Assembly: GCF_000688255.1 (NCBI RefSeq)
Contig: NZ_JHYS01000002.1
Span: 186,001 to 250,000, forward strand
Direction of reading: 5' to 3'
DNA from: Simplicispira psychrophila DSM 11588
GTDB taxonomy: Bacteria; Pseudomonadota; Gammaproteobacteria; Burkholderiales; Burkholderiaceae_C
DNA: 64,000 nucleotides
The notes under the pieces were generated by a model that worked only from the letters and a program-made list of their open reading frames with translations, was not told where the DNA came from and searched no databases. The translations under genes and the position numbers were made by a program. This document shows, piece after piece, positions 2,503 through 41,610 of this stretch (positions within the stretch are counted from its first letter, which is position 1; each line of letters begins with the position of its first letter).

Positions 2503-3492
2503 TCAGAACGGCGCGCTGCCGGGATCGGTATCGAGCGGCGCGGCGGCCGGGCCGGTGACGGTGCCCGGCGTGGACACTGGGGCTGCGGCGGCGGCACCGA
2601 TGCCGCGCTCGCTCTCGCCGCCCAGCGCTTCTATCAGCTCGGGGATGAATTGGCGCAATTCACCGGTGGCCAGTGCCACATCGGCATCAAAGCCCCCATC
2701 GTCGCCGGCATGGCTCGCCGTCGCCGCTTCCAGAAAGGTCAGTTTCTTGATCTGCAGGCCTTCGGTCAGCAAAAACGAGAGGCGATCGTCCCAGCTCAGC
2801 GCCAGTTTGGTCGGCAGTTTGCCGGCGGCAATGTGCGCCTGGATTTCTTCGATGTCCAGCGCGTGGCGGGCGTAACGCACCACAGCTTTTTCTTCATCGG
2901 CGCTTTTGAGTTCGCATTCGCGGTCGATGCTGAAACCAGGTGGCGCCTCTTGCGTGCTCAGCCAGTGGGCCATCGCCGCTTGGGCGCTGGTTTGGGTGTC
3001 CAGCAGCGCCAGCGACAGGCCGGGCAGCGCTTCAGTCAGCGCACTGGCGACTTCATCGGCACGGCCCTGACTGCTGGTATCGAGCACTAAAAAGCGTGCT
3101 TCGGTATCGATCCACACCCACATGGCGCCTTGTTTGGTAAACGCCATCGGCAGCAAGTCCAGCTTGGCTTCTTCTTTCAGCTCCTTGCTTTCTTTCTTGC
3201 CAGGCTTGCGGCCGGTTTCCTGTTCGATGCGGGCGGCCTTGTCTTGCACGCGGCGCGCCAGCACCGAACCAGGCAGCACTTTCGACTCGACCATGAAGCG
3301 CAACAGCCATTGTCCACCGACCGATTCGGCCATCAGGCCATGCTCCTGGCCGCGCGGCGGTGCCCAGCCCCAGGAGCGCTCTTGCGTGGCGCCGCACTCC
3401 ATGAAAGGCCGTTGGCTCAAGGCGGCTTCAACTTCAGTCAGGTCAATCTTCCAGTGCGGCGCAATGCGGTAAATGATCATGTTTTTGAACAT
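2503..3492 (-). CDS. rdgC: Recombination-associated protein RdgC
   Basis: 329 residues, close to the usual ~300, with the diagnostic N-terminus (Met-Phe-Lys-Asn-x-x-Ile-Tyr-Arg) and the internal Trp-Gly-Trp-Ala-Pro-Pro-Arg-Gly segment. RdgC forms a ring-shaped dimer that binds double-stranded DNA and restrains RecA; it acts on the nucleoid. The last ~35 residues (Ala/Pro/Thr-rich, after Gly-Gly-Glu-Ser-Glu-Arg) are an unstructured extension that I do not recall in the E. coli protein. It is transcribed away from the Spy-like gene, across a 219-bp divergent intergenic region. Confidence 0.94.
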   Translation of the reverse strand: MFKNMIIYRIAPHWKIDLTEVEAALSQRPFMECGATQERSWGWAPPRGQEHGLMAESVGGQWLLRFMVESKVLPGSVLARRVQDKAARIEQETGRKPGKKESKELKEEAKLDLLPMAFTKQGAMWVWIDTEARFLVLDTSSQGRADEVASALTEALPGLSLALLDTQTSAQAAMAHWLSTQEAPPGFSIDRECELKSADEEKAVVRYARHALDIEEIQAHIAAGKLPTKLALSWDDRLSFLLTEGLQIKKLTFLEAATASHAGDDGGFDADVALATGELRQFIPELIEALGGESERGIGAAAAAPVSTPGTVTGPAAAPLDTDPGSAPF

Positions 3493-3711
3493 GGAAAACC
3501 CTTATTCATCTCTACAGAGGGGACCACAGGCCAGCGCAAAGCCGCACCCGGGGGCATGTGGCCATTGTCTGCGCAGCGAGGTACGACACAACTTTACACA
3601 GCCTCACGTCGTCCTCATGGCGGCGACACACAGGCAGAGCACACTACCTCCAAACCGCTGACACGGTCGTACCAGCGGTCCCTTGCTACCGACTCACCAA
3701 AAGGATTTCAC

Positions 3712-4353
3712 ATGACCTTCTTTTCTCGCACCTTTGTTGCCACGGCTGTTTTGGCCGCTTTGACCTTGCCGGCGCTGGCCCAGACGGCAGCGCCGGCGGC
3801 CGCCACCACCCCGGCGACCCAGACAGCCCCCTCGGCCCCCTCGGCCACAGCGGCAAAGTCCGGCGAACGCTCGATGCGGCATATGCCCCACCGGGCAAAA
3901 ATGCAGGAACGCATGGCGCAGCACCAAGCGCAGCTAAAGCAAAAATTGGAACTCAGCGCCGCCCAGGAGCCGGCCTGGAACACCTTCATCGCCACCATGC
4001 ATCCCGCCGGCGAGCGCTCGGCCCGTCTGGGCCACTTGAGCCGCGAAGAAATGCAAAAGCTCACCACCCCCGAGCGCATTGAGCGGATGCGCGCACAGCG
4101 CAACCAGCGCCAGGCGGAGGCAGACAAACGAACCGATGCCGTTCTGGCTTTTTATGCCGAACTGAACCCGGCACAGCAAAAAACCTTTGATGCACAAACC
4201 GCGCGCTATCAGCACCACCTGGGCGGCAACAACCAAATGCGCGGCGAACGTGGCATGGGTAAAAATTATGGCGAACGCGGCATGGGTAAAAACTACGGCG
4301 AGCACCGTTGGGATCAGCGCCCACAGAACCAGGCGCCCACCACGCCCCAGTAA
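3712..4353 (+). CDS. Spy/CpxP-like periplasmic protein (LTxxQ-type)
   Basis: 213 residues from the ATG at 3712, preceded by AAAGGAT. A longer in-frame extension runs back to 3130 across rdgC antisense and is rejected. A Sec signal peptide is clear (hydrophobic core then Ala-Leu-Ala at residue ~21). After a Thr/Ala/Pro linker comes a charged helical region with Met-rich and His-rich patches, a Leu-Ser-Ala-Ala-Gln motif near 80 and a second one (Leu-Asn-Pro-Ala-Gln) near 150; these are the LTxxQ repeats of the Spy/CpxP ATP-independent periplasmic chaperones. The C-terminus has a perfect tandem nonapeptide (GERGMGKNY twice, residues ~180-200). Such proteins buffer envelope stress. Family membership is inferred from these motifs. 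Confidence 0.75.
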   Translation: MTFFSRTFVATAVLAALTLPALAQTAAPAAATTPATQTAPSAPSATAAKSGERSMRHMPHRAKMQERMAQHQAQLKQKLELSAAQEPAWNTFIATMHPAGERSARLGHLSREEMQKLTTPERIERMRAQRNQRQAEADKRTDAVLAFYAELNPAQQKTFDAQTARYQHHLGGNNQMRGERGMGKNYGERGMGKNYGEHRWDQRPQNQAPTTPQ

Positions 4354-4434: not shown

Positions 4435-4635
4435 CGCCCTGTTTATCTTGAGTGCCTACAAAATAAGCAAATTCACCTGTGTATAACCATGGGGGCAAAA
4501 TCCGCACAACTACCGACTTATCCACAGAAAAATCAACCCGGCCAAAGTTGTTCGCATTGCGCTGCCACCATACAGAGTAGCCACCCACATACTTGCAAAG
4601 TTGGCAAGCTATTGTCCTGACACGAATAAATCAAC

Positions 4636-4680
4636 TTATCCACAGAACAGGGCAAACCCTATTACTACTACTATTTAAAG
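4636..4680 (+). other. DnaA box / GC element / DnaA-trio unit 1
   Basis: Exact TTATCCACA at 4636-4644, 6-nt spacer, GGCAAACCCT at 4651-4660, then triplets TAT-TAC-TAC-TAC-TAT from 4660 and an AT-rich tail. In known origins the DnaA filament nucleates on the box and runs onto the trio strand to open the duplex. The assignment is by sequence pattern only. Confidence 0.6.
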
Positions 4681-4889
4681 ATAGAAGTCTTAGTAGAACA
4701 ACCAAACGCGCACCACCAGGCTGGATCAACGTCCACAGATGGGGAGGGGAAATTCCGCGACGGTGTGTTTGTCCAATCGGCGAAAAGAGGCGGGCAATGG
4801 CCTGGTGCGCAAAAACAACGGGCCCACCGGCGGCTTGAAGCCGTTCGGATCGGCGCAGCGCCAGCGCTGCCATCGAGGCGGCCCGTCTT

Positions 4890-4963
4890 AATTACTATCT
4901 TTTTAATAGCTTGTAGCGCTTTGGATAGGGGCGTCAGAGGCTGTTTTCATCTAAAAAAATAGC
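4890..4963 (-). repeat. Dispersed ~65-bp repeat, minus orientation
   Basis: Read on the minus strand this shows the family landmarks: T-rich start, GCCTCTgaCgCC, AAaGCGCT, AGCTATTAAAAA. It sits inside the origin-like region between the two trio units. Confidence 0.6.
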
Positions 4964-5134
4964 TCCGCCTGACAGCCTGAACAAAGCTGTGGACAGTTCT
5001 GGCATAAACGTCTAGTTATCCACAGAAAAAAGACCCGGCGACAGGTTATCCCCGCTTGCGCGACACCGGCGGCAGGGACTGGCGCACACACTTGCTGCGA
5101 TGGTAAGTGCTTGAATCAAAAAGAAAAAAATAGG

Positions 5135-5190
5135 TTATCCACAAAAAATGGCAAACCCTACTATGACTACTATGTATTCATAGAATCTAT
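5135..5190 (+). other. DnaA box / GC element / DnaA-trio unit 2
   Basis: Exact TTATCCACA at 5135-5143, 6-nt spacer, GGCAAACCCT at 5150-5159, then triplets TAC-TAT-GAC-TAC-TAT followed by AT-rich sequence to about 5200. Same order and spacing as the unit 499 bp upstream, so the two probably arose by duplication or are kept by function. Confidence 0.6.
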
Positions 5191-5490
5191 AAAAGATAAC
5201 TCCTGAAAACAGTGCCAAAAATCAGTCTCCTGCAGATACAGGGACTGTTTATGCATACAGTTTCAAAAGAGAAGATCGCAGCCATGCCCTTCGCAAGGCT
5301 CTGTGAGCGTCGATGGGGCGCTCCATGCCTGTGCTGTGTCCCCACCCCTGCCCCGCTACAAGAACGGCTCTTGGCGGGGCATCAGGGGGCTTGGGGAGGG
5401 GGTGGAGGCTGCCTTGGCAGGGTCCAAGGCCGTTTTTAGCGGAAAGGGGCTATCCCGGCTAGGCGGCCAGGCAGCAGGAGCTGCGCCGTT

Positions 5491-8400
5491 TCAGGGCCGT
5501 GGCGGGACGAGGTTCAGGGGGTTGCGCAGCAGCCATTCCAGTTGTTCGTGTGGCACGGGTTCACTGAAAAGGTTGCCTTGAAATAGACGGCAACCGGCCT
5601 GCAGCAGGGCATCGCGTTGCGCTAGCGTCTCTACTCCTTCGGCGATCACAGCCAAATCCAGACCTTTACCCAGGCCAATGATGGTGTTGACGATGGCGGA
5701 GTCGTTGATATCGGTGAGCAAATCGCGCACAAAGCTTTGATCGATCTTGATTTGTTCCAGCGGCATCCGCTTGAGGTAGCTCAGACTGGAATACCCCGTG
5801 CCAAAGTCGTCCAGTGAAAAGCCGACGTGGTATTCGCTCAGCGTGGTCATGGTGGCAATGGTGGTTTCCATGTTCTCGACCAGCAGGCTTTCGGTCAGCT
5901 CCAGTTTGAGCAAATGTGCCGGCGCCCCGGTGATGGCCAGAATGCGCGCCACGTCGGTGACAAAACTGGCGTGGCGAAACTGTCGTGGGCTGACGTTGAC
6001 CGACATCGTCAGGTGGCGCAACTGGGGACTGCTGCGCCAGCGTGCCAGCCGGCTGCAGGCCACGTGCAACACCCAACGGCCCAGTGGCAGGATCAGGCCG
6101 GTTTCTTCGGCCAGCGCAATGAAGTCGGCTGGCAGCACCAGGCCGCGCTCGGGGTGTTGCCAGCGCACCAAGGCTTCGACGCCGATGAATTGGTCCTGGT
6201 GGTTGACTTGCGGCTGGTAGTGCAGCAGAAACTGGCTTTCTGCCAGCGCGGTGCGCAGGGCCGCTTCCAGCTCGGCACGGGCCAGCACCACGGCCTGCAT
6301 CTGCGGATCAAAAAAGTGCAGGGTATTGCGCCCGGCGGCCTTGGACTGGTACATGGCCAGATCGGCGTGGCGCAGCAGGTCGCCCACGCTGTGCTGATCG
6401 CCCAGAAAGGGCGCGATACCAATGCTGGGGGTGCTGCGGTACTGGTAGTGGGCCAGTTTGTAGGGCACGGCCAGTGAAGCCAGAATTTTTTCACCGATGT
6501 CCTTGGCGGCCAGTGTCAGTTCATCGAGGTCGGCGCTAAGCGCTTCCAGTACCACCACAAATTCGTCGCCACCCAGGCGCGCCACCGTGTCAACGCTGCG
6601 CACGCAGCCGTTCAGGCGCTGGGCCACCTGTTTCAGCAGCAGGTCGCCCATGTCGTGGCCCAGGGTGTCGTTCAGGGTCTTGAAGTTGTCCATGTCGATA
6701 AACAGCAGTGCCCCGCCTTGCTGGTTGCGTTGCGATGCGGCCAGGGCGTGGTGCATCCGTTCGGTCAGCAACATGCGATTGGGCAGGCCGGTCAGGGCGT
6801 CGTAGAACGCCAGGTGCTGGATCTGGCGCTCAGTGGCCTTGCGCTGGCTGATGTCGGTGTTGATGGACAGGATGGATTCGGGTTTGCCGTCTTCGCTGCA
6901 TACCAGGGTCAAGCGCACTTCCGTTTCCATCAGTTCGCCACTGCGGTGTTTTTGCGTCCGTTCACCAACCCATTCGCCGTGCGCCAGCACCATCTCGATG
7001 GCTTGATGAAAGGGGATCGGATCTTCATAAAGCAGCTCCACCACCGATTGCTGCTGCGCCTGTGCCTGGGGCCAGCCATACATGCGCTCGGCACCCTGGT
7101 TCCAGAACAGGATGCGGTATTGCAGGTCGTAGGCGACGATGGCGTCCTGGGCCTTGTCTAGCAGCGTGGCCTGGCGGCGAATGCGTGCGTCGGCTACCTG
7201 CCGCTCTATTTCGGCGGCAGCGCGCGCCGCAAAAATCTGCAGCGTTGACGTGACGAATTGAATGTTCTTCAGGGGCTGATGGAACAAGACGAAAATCATG
7301 CCCAAAGGCTTTTTCTGGCTGTCGTACAGCTGTTGTCCGGCATAGCTTTGTGCCCCCAGGGGGTACATTGCCTCCACCTGTGGGTACTGCTGGTAGAGCC
7401 GGTCCGCGACCACGTGCTGGTGCTTCGTCAGCAGGGACAGGCAGGGCAGGTGTTCCAGCGAGTATTCAGCGTTGGCCTGCAGTTGGCCATTGATGACCAG
7501 CGCCAGTGAGGTCATGCGCGGGGGGGGCCCGTCGGCCTGGCCTTCGGATGCGGGCATCAGACGCGCCACGCAGGCGACCTGGGCGCCCATGGCGTCAGCC
7601 ATGTTGCTTGCCAGTTGAACAAAAAATTCGGTGCCGGTGGTGGCGGAAACGGCCGCTGCGACCTTGATCACCACGGTCTGCAGGCGTTGCTGCTCCTGGC
7701 GCGTGCGCAGGTTCATCACGCCAAACGCCAGGTCGTTGGCCAGCTCCTGCAGCAGATAGGTTTCTTCGGTGCCCGGCTGTAGCACCTTGGAGACATACAG
7801 GCAGAGCACGCCAAAGGTATGGTCGCCGTGGCGCAGCGGCAGACAGATGCCGCCCTGAAAACCGTGTGCGCGGAGGCGCTCGGCATAATTTTCGTAGGTT
7901 GGGTCGGTCAGCAGATCGGGCACCAGAGTGAGCTCGCCGGTGCGCACTGTGGCGCCTCCCATACCGAGGCCCTGTGGCACGTTGTCAGACCACGACAGCT
8001 GCAGCGTGTCGAGGAAATGGTCGTCAGGCCCGGCATGGGCCACCGGTTCGATGGTTTTGTACGCATCGTCGTGGGCCAGACCGACCCAGGCCATGCGGTA
8101 GCCGCCAACCTCGACCATGATGCGGCAGATGGCGTGTAGCAATGCGCTCTCGGAGATGGCGCGCATCAGCATCTCGTTGCAGGCGCTGAGCAAATGCCGG
8201 GCGCGCCCGACGCGCTCGAGGTCGTGTTCGATGCGCCGGCGTTCGGTCACGTCACTGACCATGACCTGGCACCCTTTGTGGCCGTTGAAGTCAATGCAGC
8301 GTGCCGACGCCTCGATCTCGAGCACACTGCCATCCTTGCGCCGGTGGCGTGTCGGCAGGTGCTTCAGGCATTGCCCTGGCACCACGGTGTAGGCCGGGGT

Positions 8401-9675
8401 CTGGAGCGGCCACAAATCAGTCACCGCCATGCCCAGCAGTTCAGCTTCGCTGTAGCCATAGGTGGCCACCATCGCATCGTTCACCGCCAGCAGGGGCAAG
8501 CCGTCGTCGTGTGCGTACACCCACATTGGCTGTGGATGGGCTTGGAACAGCCGCCGGTATTGCTGTTCGGAGGTTTGCAATTGCGCTGACATGCGGCGCA
8601 GTTGCACCAGTGACTCCATCAGCACCTGCAGATGTTCCACGTCGCCTTGGTCAAATGCATCGGTTTCGTCAGACACCGCGTTGAGTGCTCCGAGCACCGT
8701 CTGGTTGGCTCGCAAAGGCACTGCCAGCACCGAGCGGATGGTCTGAGCGTTATCGGCCCAAGCCTGGTTCCAGCCTTCGGCCTGGGTGTTGTTGCACAGC
8801 ACCGTGCGGCCTTCTTTCAATTGTGCCCAAGCGGTGTGGTTTTGCAGCGGCAGCATGGCACCCAGCGGTCCGGCGCAGGCATGCATCACCAAGTGATCGC
8901 CTTCGTGCAGTTCCACCATGGCACCGCGGGCGCCGCTGGCGCGCAAGGCGGCCGTGGCTACCAGCTCCAGCACCTCGTGCAGGCTCAGCTCCATGGAGGA
9001 TATTTGTTGCTGCACCTGCACCAAATCGGTATGGGTGATGGTGTCCTTTTGAGCGGCCAATGGGGTCTTTTTGTGGGTGTTGATGTCGATGATTTCCCCC
9101 TTTTTGTGTAATGCCTTGCCTGCGCCCTCGTCCTCAGTGGCTGCCGGCAGTGCCGTCTGCAGTGCTGCCTGCAGAGCGGCATATTGCTGCGCCAAGCGCT
9201 GCTGCATACGGCGCCATTGCAGTTGCAGCGCCGCATGCAGGGCCAGGAGGTGCAAGGCATCGAGCGTTTCGGGCAGCAGGGTGCGCGCCTGGGTGTCCAG
9301 GATCACCAGCGTGCCCAACACCCCCTCTTCCGGGTGTACCAGTGGAAAGCAGGCCAGAAAGCGAACGTGGGGCTCGCCCAGCACCAGGGGGTGTTGGCTC
9401 CACTGCGGCGCTTGCAGCGTGTCGGCCACGATCCAGGCTTCACGGCCCTGGTGTTGTCCCTCGTCGCACCAGGCCAGGGCCGGCTCGATCTGCGCTGGCG
9501 CCAGGCCGACGCTGGCCGTTAAATGTGCAGACGCATGGCCCCAGACGCTGACCAGCGCCATGGGTGTGGCGCCCAAGTGCTGCGACAGCTGGGCGAGTCG
9601 TTCAAGCTCTCGCTGGGCGTCCTGCTGAGAAAGATCAGACACGGCGGCGGCGCAGGCTGTGGACAGGGGCTGCAT
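5491..9675 (-). CDS. Multi-GAF/PAS diguanylate cyclase/phosphodiesterase (GGDEF-EAL)
   Basis: 1394 residues with no obvious membrane segment. Rough order: GAF (25-155), linker, GAF (225-365), PAS (375-490), GAF (495-650), GAF-like (665-830), PAS (840-965), GGDEF (970-1140), EAL (1145-1394). The cyclase site is an intact Gly-Gly-Asp-Glu-Phe near residue 1035. The EAL domain keeps Glu-Ala-Leu-Val-Arg-Trp near 1167 and the Asp-Asp-Phe-Gly-Thr-Gly-Tyr-Ser-Ser loop. It should therefore be able both to make and to break cyclic di-GMP, with the balance set by small ligands or redox state sensed by the GAF/PAS array. The ligands cannot be told from sequence. It is monocistronic and faces the origin-like region with its 3' end. 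Confidence 0.93.
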   Translation of the reverse strand: MQPLSTACAAAVSDLSQQDAQRELERLAQLSQHLGATPMALVSVWGHASAHLTASVGLAPAQIEPALAWCDEGQHQGREAWIVADTLQAPQWSQHPLVLGEPHVRFLACFPLVHPEEGVLGTLVILDTQARTLLPETLDALHLLALHAALQLQWRRMQQRLAQQYAALQAALQTALPAATEDEGAGKALHKKGEIIDINTHKKTPLAAQKDTITHTDLVQVQQQISSMELSLHEVLELVATAALRASGARGAMVELHEGDHLVMHACAGPLGAMLPLQNHTAWAQLKEGRTVLCNNTQAEGWNQAWADNAQTIRSVLAVPLRANQTVLGALNAVSDETDAFDQGDVEHLQVLMESLVQLRRMSAQLQTSEQQYRRLFQAHPQPMWVYAHDDGLPLLAVNDAMVATYGYSEAELLGMAVTDLWPLQTPAYTVVPGQCLKHLPTRHRRKDGSVLEIEASARCIDFNGHKGCQVMVSDVTERRRIEHDLERVGRARHLLSACNEMLMRAISESALLHAICRIMVEVGGYRMAWVGLAHDDAYKTIEPVAHAGPDDHFLDTLQLSWSDNVPQGLGMGGATVRTGELTLVPDLLTDPTYENYAERLRAHGFQGGICLPLRHGDHTFGVLCLYVSKVLQPGTEETYLLQELANDLAFGVMNLRTRQEQQRLQTVVIKVAAAVSATTGTEFFVQLASNMADAMGAQVACVARLMPASEGQADGPPPRMTSLALVINGQLQANAEYSLEHLPCLSLLTKHQHVVADRLYQQYPQVEAMYPLGAQSYAGQQLYDSQKKPLGMIFVLFHQPLKNIQFVTSTLQIFAARAAAEIERQVADARIRRQATLLDKAQDAIVAYDLQYRILFWNQGAERMYGWPQAQAQQQSVVELLYEDPIPFHQAIEMVLAHGEWVGERTQKHRSGELMETEVRLTLVCSEDGKPESILSINTDISQRKATERQIQHLAFYDALTGLPNRMLLTERMHHALAASQRNQQGGALLFIDMDNFKTLNDTLGHDMGDLLLKQVAQRLNGCVRSVDTVARLGGDEFVVVLEALSADLDELTLAAKDIGEKILASLAVPYKLAHYQYRSTPSIGIAPFLGDQHSVGDLLRHADLAMYQSKAAGRNTLHFFDPQMQAVVLARAELEAALRTALAESQFLLHYQPQVNHQDQFIGVEALVRWQHPERGLVLPADFIALAEETGLILPLGRWVLHVACSRLARWRSSPQLRHLTMSVNVSPRQFRHASFVTDVARILAITGAPAHLLKLELTESLLVENMETTIATMTTLSEYHVGFSLDDFGTGYSSLSYLKRMPLEQIKIDQSFVRDLLTDINDSAIVNTIIGLGKGLDLAVIAEGVETLAQRDALLQAGCRLFQGNLFSEPVPHEQLEWLLRNPLNLVPPRP

Positions 9676-34706: not shown

Positions 34707-35477
34707 ATGCTTGGCATTACCCCACCGACTAAAACCTTGGCTTTGGCCTTCGCCGCATTTTTGGGCTGTGCCGCCCATGCCAGCGGCACCGTACACGCCC
34801 ATTGGGATTACCAAGGCGCACACGAGGGGCCTGCCAATTGGGCCGAGTTAGACCCGACCTTTGAAACCTGTGCCAAAGGCGGCAGCCAAAGCCCGATCGA
34901 CATCAGCAGCACCGTCAAGACGGATTTGCCAAGCCTTAATTTTGACTACCGCAAAACCGAAGCCAGCATTGTGAATAACGGCCACACCGTGCAGGTCAAT
35001 GTGCCTGCAGGCAGCCAATTCAAGGTGGGCGACCAAACTTACGGGCTATTGCAGTTCCACTTTCATACTCCCAGCGAAGAAACCATCGGCGGCAAACACA
35101 CCGCCATGGTGGGGCACTTTGTCCACAAAAATGCGGCCGGACAACTCGGGGTGGTGGCGGTGCTGATGCAGCCCGGCCCCATGCCCAGAAACGAGGCGTA
35201 TGCCCCGATCTTTGACCATTTGCCGCGCCCGAACGAAAAAATCACTGTAGAAGGCATGGAGCTTGATCTGGCTGCGATGCTGCCCGCAGACAAGGGCTAC
35301 TACAGCTTTGACGGCTCCTTAACCACACCGCCGTGCTCCGAATCGGTCAATTGGATGGTGCTGAAGCGGCCTATCGCGCTGGGCAGCGGCCAAATCAAGG
35401 CGTTTCGGCGCCTGTTCAACGCCAATGCCCGCCCCGTGCAGCCGCTCAATGGCCGGGTGATCAAAGAGTCGCTCTAA
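34707..35477 (+). CDS. Periplasmic alpha-carbonic anhydrase
   Basis: 256 residues from the ATG at 34707, with AAAGAAAG upstream. The signal peptide ends near Ala-Ala-His-Ala-Ser, so the enzyme acts in the periplasm, hydrating CO2 to bicarbonate. The zinc ligands are seen in Phe-His-Phe-His-Thr-Pro-Ser-Glu near residue 120 and the third His in Val-Gly-His-Phe-Val-His near 137. Ser-Pro-Ile-Asp-Ile and Leu-Thr-Thr-Pro-Pro-Cys-Ser-Glu are family hallmarks, and the Cys pair of bacterial alpha-CAs is present. Codon use is less GC-rich than its neighbours and it sits beside an AT-rich gap, so it may have been acquired. Confidence 0.93.
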   Translation: MLGITPPTKTLALAFAAFLGCAAHASGTVHAHWDYQGAHEGPANWAELDPTFETCAKGGSQSPIDISSTVKTDLPSLNFDYRKTEASIVNNGHTVQVNVPAGSQFKVGDQTYGLLQFHFHTPSEETIGGKHTAMVGHFVHKNAAGQLGVVAVLMQPGPMPRNEAYAPIFDHLPRPNEKITVEGMELDLAAMLPADKGYYSFDGSLTTPPCSESVNWMVLKRPIALGSGQIKAFRRLFNANARPVQPLNGRVIKESL

Positions 35478-35486
35478 CCGCGCGAC

Positions 35487-36371
35487 TTAGGCGCCGGCCG
35501 CCGTCGCCATGCGCAGCTGGCGCGCCGCTTCTTCGTCCCGGGCGTCGTCGATCTCGCGCAGCACCGCTTGCATATCCACATCGGCATGGCTGCGCTCATA
35601 GCGGCCGGTTAGCGGCGTCTCGTTGCTGAGCAAGCCGGCTTGGTACAGGCTCCAGATTTCGGCGCCGTACTCGGTCGCCAGCAGCGCCGGGGCAAACTGG
35701 CCAAAGAAGTTGCGCAGGTTGCCGACATCGCGCAGCAACATGCGCTGTGCGTGGTTGTTGCCGGCTGCGTCCACGGCTTGGGGCAGGTCGATGATCACCG
35801 GGAAGTCCACGCTCTCGCCTTCACCTTCCACCGCACCGTGGGCCAGCAGGATGTTGAACTCCGACAAATCCCCATGCACCACGCCGGCGCACAACATGCG
35901 CACCACCTCGGCAATCAGCGTGGCGTGGTGCTGCAGTGCCTGCTCGGGGGTGAAGGACACATCGTTCAGGCGCGGAGCCGCATCGCCATGGGCGTCGGTG
36001 ACCAGCTCCATCAGCAGCACGCCGTCGTGAAAATTGAACGGCTGCGGCACGCGAACGCCGGCTGCGGCGAGGCGGTAGAGCGCGTCCACCTCGGCGCTTT
36101 GCCAGGCTGCCTCTTGCTCTTGCCGGCCAAACTTGCTGCCCTTGGCCATCGCCCGGGCCGATCGCGAGTTCTTGACCTTGCGGTTTTCGGTGTAGTCCAC
36201 CGCTTGGCGGAAGCTCCGGTTGTTGGCTTCTTTGTAAATCTTGGCGCAGCGCGTCTGGTCGCCAATGCGGACGACAAACACCATCGCCTCTTTGCCGCTC
36301 ATGAGCTGGCGCACCACGGTGTCGATGAGACCTTCTTCGATCAGGGACTGGAGTCGGGGAGGAGCTTTCAT
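35487..36371 (-). CDS. RIO-type serine protein kinase
   Basis: 294 residues, RIO1-like kinase fold. The ATP lysine is in Cys-Ala-Lys-Ile-Tyr-Lys-Glu near residue 44, the catalytic loop is His-Gly-Asp-Leu-Ser-Glu-Phe-Asn near 173 and the metal-binding Asp is in Ile-Ile-Asp-Leu-Pro-Gln-Ala-Val near 202. Bacterial members (the PA4780 type) are active kinases of unknown target; archaeal and eukaryotic RIO proteins act in ribosome maturation. The gene is convergent with the carbonic anhydrase, 9 bp apart, with no obvious terminator. Confidence 0.9.
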   Translation of the reverse strand: MKAPPRLQSLIEEGLIDTVVRQLMSGKEAMVFVVRIGDQTRCAKIYKEANNRSFRQAVDYTENRKVKNSRSARAMAKGSKFGRQEQEAAWQSAEVDALYRLAAAGVRVPQPFNFHDGVLLMELVTDAHGDAAPRLNDVSFTPEQALQHHATLIAEVVRMLCAGVVHGDLSEFNILLAHGAVEGEGESVDFPVIIDLPQAVDAAGNNHAQRMLLRDVGNLRNFFGQFAPALLATEYGAEIWSLYQAGLLSNETPLTGRYERSHADVDMQAVLREIDDARDEEAARQLRMATAAGA

Positions 36372-41514: not shown

Positions 41515-41610
41515 GTCTTCGCTCGCCTTCATTTGTGTCTATTTGTATCGACTTATAGCCCACGGGGCTGAGGCGGGGCTGACTTGGCGGGTGGGCAACG
41601 TCCGTGGGCT

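What the first reader, a model, noticed from the sequence alone, without database searches (positions are those of the whole stretch)
4440..5215. Origin-like region with two DnaA-box/GC/DnaA-trio units and no dnaA nearby
Five exact DnaA boxes lie within ~670 bp. Two of them start the same ordered module: box, 6-nt spacer, GGCAAACCCT, runs of TAC/TAT triplets, AT-rich DNA. This is the order of the basal origin unwinding element described for bacterial oriC (DnaA-trios). A repeated module ~500 bp apart suggests a bipartite origin. In most relatives oriC adjoins dnaA-dnaN, neither of which is here, so this is either an origin moved from dnaA, a second replicon's origin, or a DnaA-titrating/regulatory locus such as datA. 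Against it: about three quarters of the genes to its right are on the minus strand, the opposite of the usual leading-strand bias.
Basis: partly seen in the sequence, partly recalled or inferred. Interest (0 to 1): 0.8.

Follow-up and report, generated by a model that had tools for sequence, protein, structure and literature searches.

The report
Relocated, doubled bacterial replication origin
This stretch looks like the place where the bacterium starts copying its chromosome; it lies far from the initiator gene dnaA and carries two copies of the DNA-opening unit, an arrangement seen in many relatives.

Summary
The window is chromosomal (genus of Simplicispira metamorpha). dnaA lies on the same contig, 149 kb left, without a trio module; the only two modules found in the genome are these. 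The contig's cumulative GC-skew minimum is 10 kb from them. In three of four relatives examined it is 0.2 to 5.3 kb from a module and 39 to 254 kb from dnaA; the fourth was unclear. So this is most likely oriC moved from dnaA, not datA or a second replicon.

Each half copies one ~225-bp unit: DnaA box, 118-119 bp, DnaA box, 14-bp spacer, trios, AT-rich tail. Of 63 family genomes that could be judged, 20 have one copy just after dnaA and 43 have it displaced. Of 66 named rdgC loci, 57 carry two copies; but of 15 good genomes of the window's own genus, 10 show two and 5 only one. Copies lie 0.3 to 46 kb apart. One genome keeps a decayed copy after dnaA plus a strong displaced one.

New variant of a known kind (BUS-type oriC); nine literature searches found no report. 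Whether both units fire is untested; natural two-site initiation is a testable possibility.

The parts
4476..4700 (+). Origin unit 1 (whole ~225-bp unit)
   Evidence: Aligns with unit 2; conserved from -160 to about +65 around its trio-side box in 58 rows (57 named loci plus the window)
4478..4486 (-). Outer inverted DnaA box of unit 1, TTATACACA (one mismatch)
   Evidence: exact at a like offset in many Acidovorax loci
4518..4526 (+). DnaA box, exact, 118 bp upstream of the trio-side box
4636..4644 (+). Trio-side DnaA box of unit 1, exact
4651..4660 (+). GGCAAACCCT, GC-rich spacer element of unit 1
4659..4673 (+). DnaA-trio tract of unit 1: CTA TTA CTA CTA CTA (3'-GAT/AAT-5' on the opposite strand), then AT-rich tail to about 4700
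   Evidence: trio columns conserved in 41 aligned modules
4975..5199 (+). Origin unit 2 (whole ~225-bp unit)
   Evidence: conserved in 57 rows
5016..5024 (+). DnaA box, exact, 119 bp upstream of the trio-side box
5046..5054 (+). Weak box-like TTATCCCCG inside unit 2; the matching place in unit 1 is GTTGTTCGCA, 4547-4556 (function inferred only)
   Evidence: TTGTCCCC / TTGTT in the consensus there
5135..5143 (+). Trio-side DnaA box of unit 2, exact
5150..5159 (+). GGCAAACCCT, GC-rich spacer element of unit 2
5158..5172 (+). DnaA-trio tract of unit 2: CTA CTA TGA CTA CTA (third triplet imperfect), then AT-rich tail to about 5199
2503..3492 (-). rdgC, left neighbour used as anchor (Pfam RdgC, E 1.7e-105)
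3712..4353 (+). LTXXQ (Spy/CpxP-like) gene next to unit 1; start chosen inside ORF 3130-4353
5491..9675 (-). GAF-PAS-GGDEF-EAL gene, right neighbour of unit 2

Best explanation
The segment 4476-5199 is the chromosomal origin of replication (oriC), moved away from dnaA and made of two direct copies of one origin unit. In each unit DnaA is expected to bind the outer boxes and the trio-side box, extend as a filament across the 14-bp GC-rich spacer onto the triplets of the opposite strand (3'-GAT-5' repeats), and melt the AT-rich tail, where the helicase is loaded. An ancestral unit between dnaA and dnaN was copied to the rdgC / LTXXQ side and doubled, and the old one decayed; in the clade of the window and its twin-carrying relatives both displaced copies were mostly kept. 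Shown: anatomy, conservation, location near the skew switch, absence beside dnaA, one intermediate-like genome. Inferred: DnaA binding, unwinding, helicase loading, the direction of the move, and whether one unit or both fire.
For: Two modules, only these, found in the genome (model R1). Skew averages -0.012 left (38 windows of 5 kb) and +0.029 right (40 windows) of the module, p 5e-6; cumulative minimum at C2:180,191 against modules at 190,636 and 191,135 and dnaA at 41,543. Relatives: minimum 389,298 with modules 394,631/398,816 and dnaA 134,882; minimum 4,516,515 with modules 4,504,508/4,515,756 and dnaA 4,615,508; minimum 39,888 with modules 40,050/49,251/69,321 and dnaA at 352. A minimum as close and as deep came up in 0, 10, 0 and 26 of 5000 window permutations (window's contig, then the three). 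Named loci: 57 of 66 with two modules, conservation ending near +65 in both units. Named genomes: 17 of 18 have at least two modules, 14 of these on the dnaA contig with the twin modules 20 to 181 kb from it; the 18th (Polaromonas) has one, after dnaA. Units after dnaA share the 117-119-bp box spacing in 8 of 8 cases with an exact upstream box and a regex module, of 19 regions. Genome G169: decayed unit after dnaA plus a strong unit 24 kb away.
Against: The skew minimum on the window's own contig is 10 kb left of the modules, with only a secondary dip at about 191 kb. Skew is positive left of about 35 kb of the contig, just left of dnaA, which a simple two-arm picture does not explain. Only 200 to 400 kb around each candidate was read, so a deeper minimum elsewhere was not excluded. 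In a fourth relative (G197, modules 46.6 kb apart) no clear minimum was seen at either module. Local gene strand bias is against it. KOPS polarity fits the module in two of four genomes, weakly on the window's contig (p 0.07; 0.5 with the stricter motif), not in G116. Two copies are not universal: of 26 genomes of the window's genus 15 have two or more, 10 one and 1 none; of the 15 good assemblies 10 and 5. Unit 2's trio tract has one imperfect triplet. R1 was built from 41 modules, so its matches to those are by construction; most conserved rows are Acidovorax and were not corrected for relatedness.
Confidence: 0.87

Rival explanations
1. The place is oriC, but one unit is the working origin and the other is a helper or a dying duplicate: a DnaA-binding enhancer or titration site of datA/incC type whose trios are no longer needed. 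(A refinement of the best explanation, not exclusive with it.)
For: In the three relatives with split copies and a clear minimum, the copy beside the LTXXQ gene is nearest the skew minimum. Unit 2 of the window has an imperfect trio. In the window's genus 5 of 15 good assemblies show only one module, and the second module scores low in two others (28 and 21.5 bits in G017 and G006). Six of the 11 displaced genomes outside the main twin clade that were searched again have one module.
Against: Both units are similarly conserved through trio and AT tail in named loci (mean information at +20..+34: 1.44 and 1.29 bits). A pure titration site would not need trios.
Confidence: 0.42
2. DnaA-titration or regulatory locus only (datA-like), with the true oriC elsewhere.
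For: Clustered boxes without dnaA; skew minimum 10 kb off on this contig.
Against: Trio modules; skew switch at the modules in three of four relatives; no other module found in the genome; likeness to the single unit after dnaA in other genomes.
Confidence: 0.06
3. Origin of an integrated or secondary replicon.
For: Distance from dnaA-dnaN.
Against: Same contig as dnaA. The six flanking proteins tested include no replication initiator. No plasmid match to 791 bases. Kept next to rdgC across named genera.
Confidence: 0.03
4. A chance cluster of boxes and TAC repeats.
For: None found.
Against: 16 sites against 5.5 expected; 0 modules in 20 shuffles; two modules in 57 of 66 loci.
Confidence: 0.01

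Closest known systems
Basal unwinding system (BUS) of bacterial oriC: DnaA box, GC-rich spacer, DnaA-trios (B. subtilis; Richardson 2019, Pelliciari 2021)
   Different: The whole unit is present twice in direct repeat and is not beside dnaA.
Bipartite oriC of B. subtilis and H. pylori
   Same: Two separated groups of DnaA boxes.
   Different: H. pylori oriC has two DnaA-box clusters and one DNA-unwinding element (abstract of PMC8235120). That dnaA lies between the clusters is recalled for B. subtilis and H. pylori; PMC4403523 says it of A. fermentans. Here each group has its own unwinding element and no dnaA lies between.
Putative double origins in DoriC (Gao 2015)
   Same: Two origin-like sites on one chromosome, including Ralstonia pickettii, also of the Burkholderiales (recalled placement).
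   Different: Predictions for representative single genomes, one site next to dnaA and the other next to hemE, parB or a second dnaA (section 4 of PMC4403523). Here both sites are copies of one unit, found in many genera.
E. coli oriC, 42 kb from dnaA (distance recalled)
   Same: oriC separated from dnaA.
   Different: PMC6669920 says the E. [quoted passage not shown] 'to dnaA' is recalled). Here the box-trio unit was moved whole and doubled.

Membership tests
BUS-type origin unit | DnaA box with at least three NAN trios within 16 bp | tested here: met
   Unit 1: five consecutive triplets after 14 nt. Unit 2: four of five fit, the third (TGA) has C in the middle on the opposite strand. Criterion from PMC8287927; PMC10721633 reports that cytosine can replace the central adenine (passage)
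BUS-type origin unit | DnaA-dependent strand opening of box plus trios | not testable with these tools
   needs purified DnaA and a strand-separation assay
Chromosomal oriC | Lies at the GC-skew switch from falling to rising | tested here: met
   10 kb off on the window's contig, 0.2 to 5.3 kb (nearest module) in three relatives, unclear in the fourth (G197); whole chromosomes not read
Chromosomal oriC | Cluster of DnaA boxes with an AT-rich element | tested here: met
Chromosomal oriC | Highest read depth in growing cells, or autonomous replication | not testable with these tools
   no reads held
dnaA-adjacent oriC | Module next to dnaA | tested here: not met
   149 kb away; no box or trio run after dnaA in the window genome
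Bipartite oriC (H. pylori / B. subtilis type) | Two box clusters sharing one unwinding element | tested here: not met
   each half has its own trio and AT tail
datA-type titration locus | Box cluster without unwinding element, away from the skew minimum (definition recalled) | tested here: not met
   trios present; near the skew minimum
Second replicon / plasmid origin | Own initiator gene beside it; separate from the dnaA-bearing chromosome | tested here: not met
   same contig as dnaA; the six flanking proteins tested are no initiators

The most novel reading that the evidence does not exclude
Many Comamonadaceae naturally carry two, sometimes three, complete and independently usable unwinding units on one chromosome, from 0.3 kb to 46 kb apart, so that initiation can happen at more than one site. 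This would be a natural exception to one origin per bacterial chromosome, with origin relocation going through a two-origin stage that genome G169 still shows.
Probability: 0.22. Interest if true: 0.87.

Novelty: new variant of a known kind. Interest (0 to 1): 0.65.

Why it matters
It gives a precise, testable origin for Acidovorax, Comamonas, Delftia, Simplicispira and relatives at a place that the usual 'look beside dnaA' rule would miss. It also provides natural comparisons of one unit, two units 0.5 kb apart, and two units 4 to 46 kb apart. These bear directly on two open questions: how an origin can move without killing the cell, and whether a bacterial chromosome can start at two places. 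It offers a natural test of the idea that the BUS is the self-contained building block of bacterial origins.

Tried and rejected
Plasmid origin: no match to 791 bases in 72,556 plasmid records. E. coli genomes: no match to the flanking genes. A pattern search with three mismatches in 60 genomes (own included) gave many chance matches and was replaced by model R1. KOPS polarity as a second signal: mixed. G197 skew: 200 kb only, no clear minimum. Rfam (gathering scores) and tRNA scans of the window: nothing. Near-box cluster at 34970-35572: overlaps a carbonic-anhydrase-like ORF (my reading, no family search) and the next gene, taken as chance.

Rows left out before counts. Of the 98 genomes so treated 20 were adjacent, 43 displaced on the same contig, and 35 could not be judged (other contig, or no dnaA row in the list). 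Of 34 genomes with two or more hits there, 3 had them on different contigs and one (G185) was one module hit in two pieces; of the remaining 30, 28 have all listed copies on one strand. Of the 66 rdgC loci eight had no module and one had one: L089, L107 and L109 are cut close to rdgC by a contig end; L088 and L096 are second rdgC loci of genomes also present with a two-module locus; L102 and L104 have their modules elsewhere in the genome; L099 (Xylophilus) has 4.3 kb on the origin side and no module there, its genome was not searched. The DnaA tree used 45 genomes chosen by hand for known layout; G169 was left out of one twin/single count.

Literature: nine searches listed no paper that I could recognise as describing a doubled BUS or a dnaA-distant oriC in these bacteria. 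DoriC itself could not be consulted and may already list the place. The A. citrulli M6 paper used Ori-Finder, but the passages seen give no position. Papers seen: passages of PMC8287927, PMC10721633, PMC6669920, PMC4948915, PMC6595937, PMC3269017 and PMC4403523; also part 1 of the Results of PMC8287927 and section 4 of PMC4403523; abstract and outline of PMC8235120; others as search listings only.

Full report
WHAT IS THERE. The intergenic segment between an LTXXQ (Spy-like) gene and a GAF-PAS-GGDEF-EAL gene carries four exact DnaA boxes at 4518, 4636, 5016 and 5135, all on the + strand, and a one-mismatch box at 4478 on the other strand. The boxes at 4636 and 5135 are followed by six bases, GGCAAACCCT, and triplets CTA TTA CTA CTA CTA (unit 1) or CTA CTA TGA CTA CTA (unit 2), then AT-rich DNA. 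Box end to first CTA is 14 bases in both. The pattern box-N(2-12)-GGCAAACCCT occurs twice in the 3.6-Mb assembly, both times here.

THE UNIT. The two halves align over about 225 bases. In each, a second exact box lies 118 (4518 to 4636) or 119 (5016 to 5135) bases upstream of the trio-side box. Among 66 named loci found through the neighbouring gene rdgC, 57 have two such modules, 1 has one and 8 have none (the misses are gone through one by one in Tried and rejected). Of the 57 distances 54 are 326 to 1003 bp and three are 1.6, 3.9 and 11.9 kb. The record titles include Acidovorax, Paracidovorax, Comamonas, Delftia, Diaphorobacter, Simplicispira and Giesbergeria. Conservation around the trio-side box is raised from -160 to about +65 and falls to 0.11-0.23 bits beyond +80 in both units. 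That suggests selection on both, through trios and AT tail; but most rows are Acidovorax and relatedness was not corrected for.

WHICH ORGANISM. The window's contig (390 kb) is from a 38-contig assembly. A genus-mate, G001, is identical over 3025 bases to the named Simplicispira metamorpha locus, so the window genome belongs to the same GTDB genus. In that genus 26 genomes are held: 15 have two or more modules, 10 have one and 1 has none; among the 15 that are at least 90% complete and at most 5% contaminated, 10 have two or more and 5 have one. In two genomes the second copy scores only 28 and 21.5 bits. So the second copy is common but not universal, and some copies seem to be fading.

IS IT THE ORIGIN? 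dnaA, with dnaN after it, is at 41.1-42.5 kb of the same contig, 149 kb left of the modules. It has two boxes upstream of the gene and neither box nor trio run in the dnaA-dnaN gap. On this contig cumulative GC skew rises to about 35 kb, falls from about 40 kb with interruptions to 180.2 kb, and then rises. Five-kb windows left and right of the module average -0.012 and +0.029 (p 5e-6), while around dnaA the skew turns the other way. The minimum is 10 kb from the modules, with a smaller dip at about 191 kb; DNA at about 167-179 kb is of lower GC content, which may pull it. The rise left of dnaA is unexplained; an inversion could do it. Four unnamed relatives were read over 200 to 400 kb, chosen because modules and dnaA are far apart or because there are several modules. 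In three the minimum is 5.3, 0.8 and 0.2 kb from the nearest module and 254, 99 and 39 kb from dnaA. In the fourth, G197, no clear answer was had. KOPS polarity is as expected in two of four stretches, weak on the window's contig and absent in G116 (G197 not tested). A deeper minimum elsewhere was not excluded.

WHERE IT CAME FROM. A sequence model of 41 modules (R1) matched 158 of 200 family genomes; the DnaA domain was found in 196 of 200. Among the 98 genomes whose listed rows I compared, the result is two-peaked: 20 have one module 1175 to 1274 bases from the DnaA-domain start on the gene's strand, that is, just after dnaA; 43 have it 8.6 to 264 kb away on the same contig; 35 could not be judged. 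Of 19 regions of the first kind (18 from this set and a Polaromonas), 8 have both an exact upstream box and a module seen by the regular expression, and in all 8 the spacing is 117-119 bases, as in the window. Of 21 displaced genomes, none had an exact box or regex module in the dnaA region read. The more sensitive model found one exception, G169: a decayed unit after dnaA, with damaged boxes and a shortened trio run, plus a strong unit 24 kb away. This is what a copy-then-lose move would leave behind. Of 18 named genomes, 17 have at least two modules (S. metamorpha three, one partial) and Polaromonas sp. RYN_579 has one, after dnaA; in 14 of the 17 the modules share dnaA's contig, the twin modules 20 to 181 kb away.

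HOW OFTEN. On a DnaA tree of 45 hand-chosen genomes the displaced state needs at least 8 changes, 5 of them forced by well-supported branches. So displacement has happened repeatedly, or includes later rearrangements. The doubled state is more orderly: 15 twin genomes, the window's among them, form one side of a branch (support 94/88, just short of the tool's star). With four further twin genomes, three changes are needed, and a single twin clade is not rejected (p-AU 0.12). The tree is weakly resolved in places and has long branches. That the dnaA-side place is the older one is inferred from G169 and from general knowledge of oriC, not from a rooted tree.

HOW IT PROBABLY WORKS. By analogy with the B. 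subtilis basal unwinding system (PMC8287927, PMC10721633), DnaA bound at the boxes would extend along the triplets of the opposite strand and open the AT tail. Each unit has what this needs. What two units do is not settled. They could be alternative start sites, a main site with a helper, or two parts of one complex. Against a strict one-complex model, relatives keep the copies apart: of 30 genomes with two or more listed modules on one contig (G185 set aside), 12 have them under 1 kb apart, 16 have them 1.6 to 46.6 kb apart, and two have three modules with one short and one long gap; 28 of the 30 have all copies on one strand. In the five split cases that I looked at (G116, G182, G029, L080, L098) rdgC lies between copies. 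In the three of them with skew, the copy nearest the minimum is the one beside the LTXXQ gene. This and the single-copy genomes favour one main site.

WHAT IS KNOWN. Separation of oriC from dnaA is known (E. coli). Double origins have been predicted for single genomes (PMC4403523, section 4 read), and two-cluster origins with one unwinding element are established (PMC8235120, abstract). I found no report of a doubled BUS or of this relocation in nine searches. DoriC could not be consulted and may list the place.

VERDICT. Most likely a real origin, moved and doubled: a new variant of a known kind. The boldest reading, natural initiation at two sites, is open and directly testable.

Noticed in passing
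G000:C2:369703-372412 (outside the window): Three parS-like sites about 179 kb right of the modules; in G116, G182 and G029 parS-like sites begin about 15 to 21 kb from the nearest module. In the window genome dnaA and parS lie far off on opposite sides of the origin.
   Followed up: partly
L202 (G169:C3:303588-306670): A genome with a decayed origin unit after dnaA and a strong unit 24 kb away, a likely intermediate of origin relocation.
   Followed up: partly
G001 (Simplicispira metamorpha) C5:154912-154958: A third, partial module on the opposite strand, 38 kb from the twin units and on the other side of dnaA.
   Followed up: no
window 34970-35572: Four one-mismatch DnaA boxes within 0.6 kb in and after a carbonic-anhydrase-like ORF; probably chance.
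   Followed up: partly
G197:C1:48935 and 95523: Two modules 46.6 kb apart on opposite strands, the widest pair on one contig.
   Followed up: partly
L076 and L088 (record title Pantoea sp. 18069): A record titled Pantoea carries two rdgC loci of this betaproteobacterial kind, one with the twin origin units; the title may be wrong.
   Followed up: no
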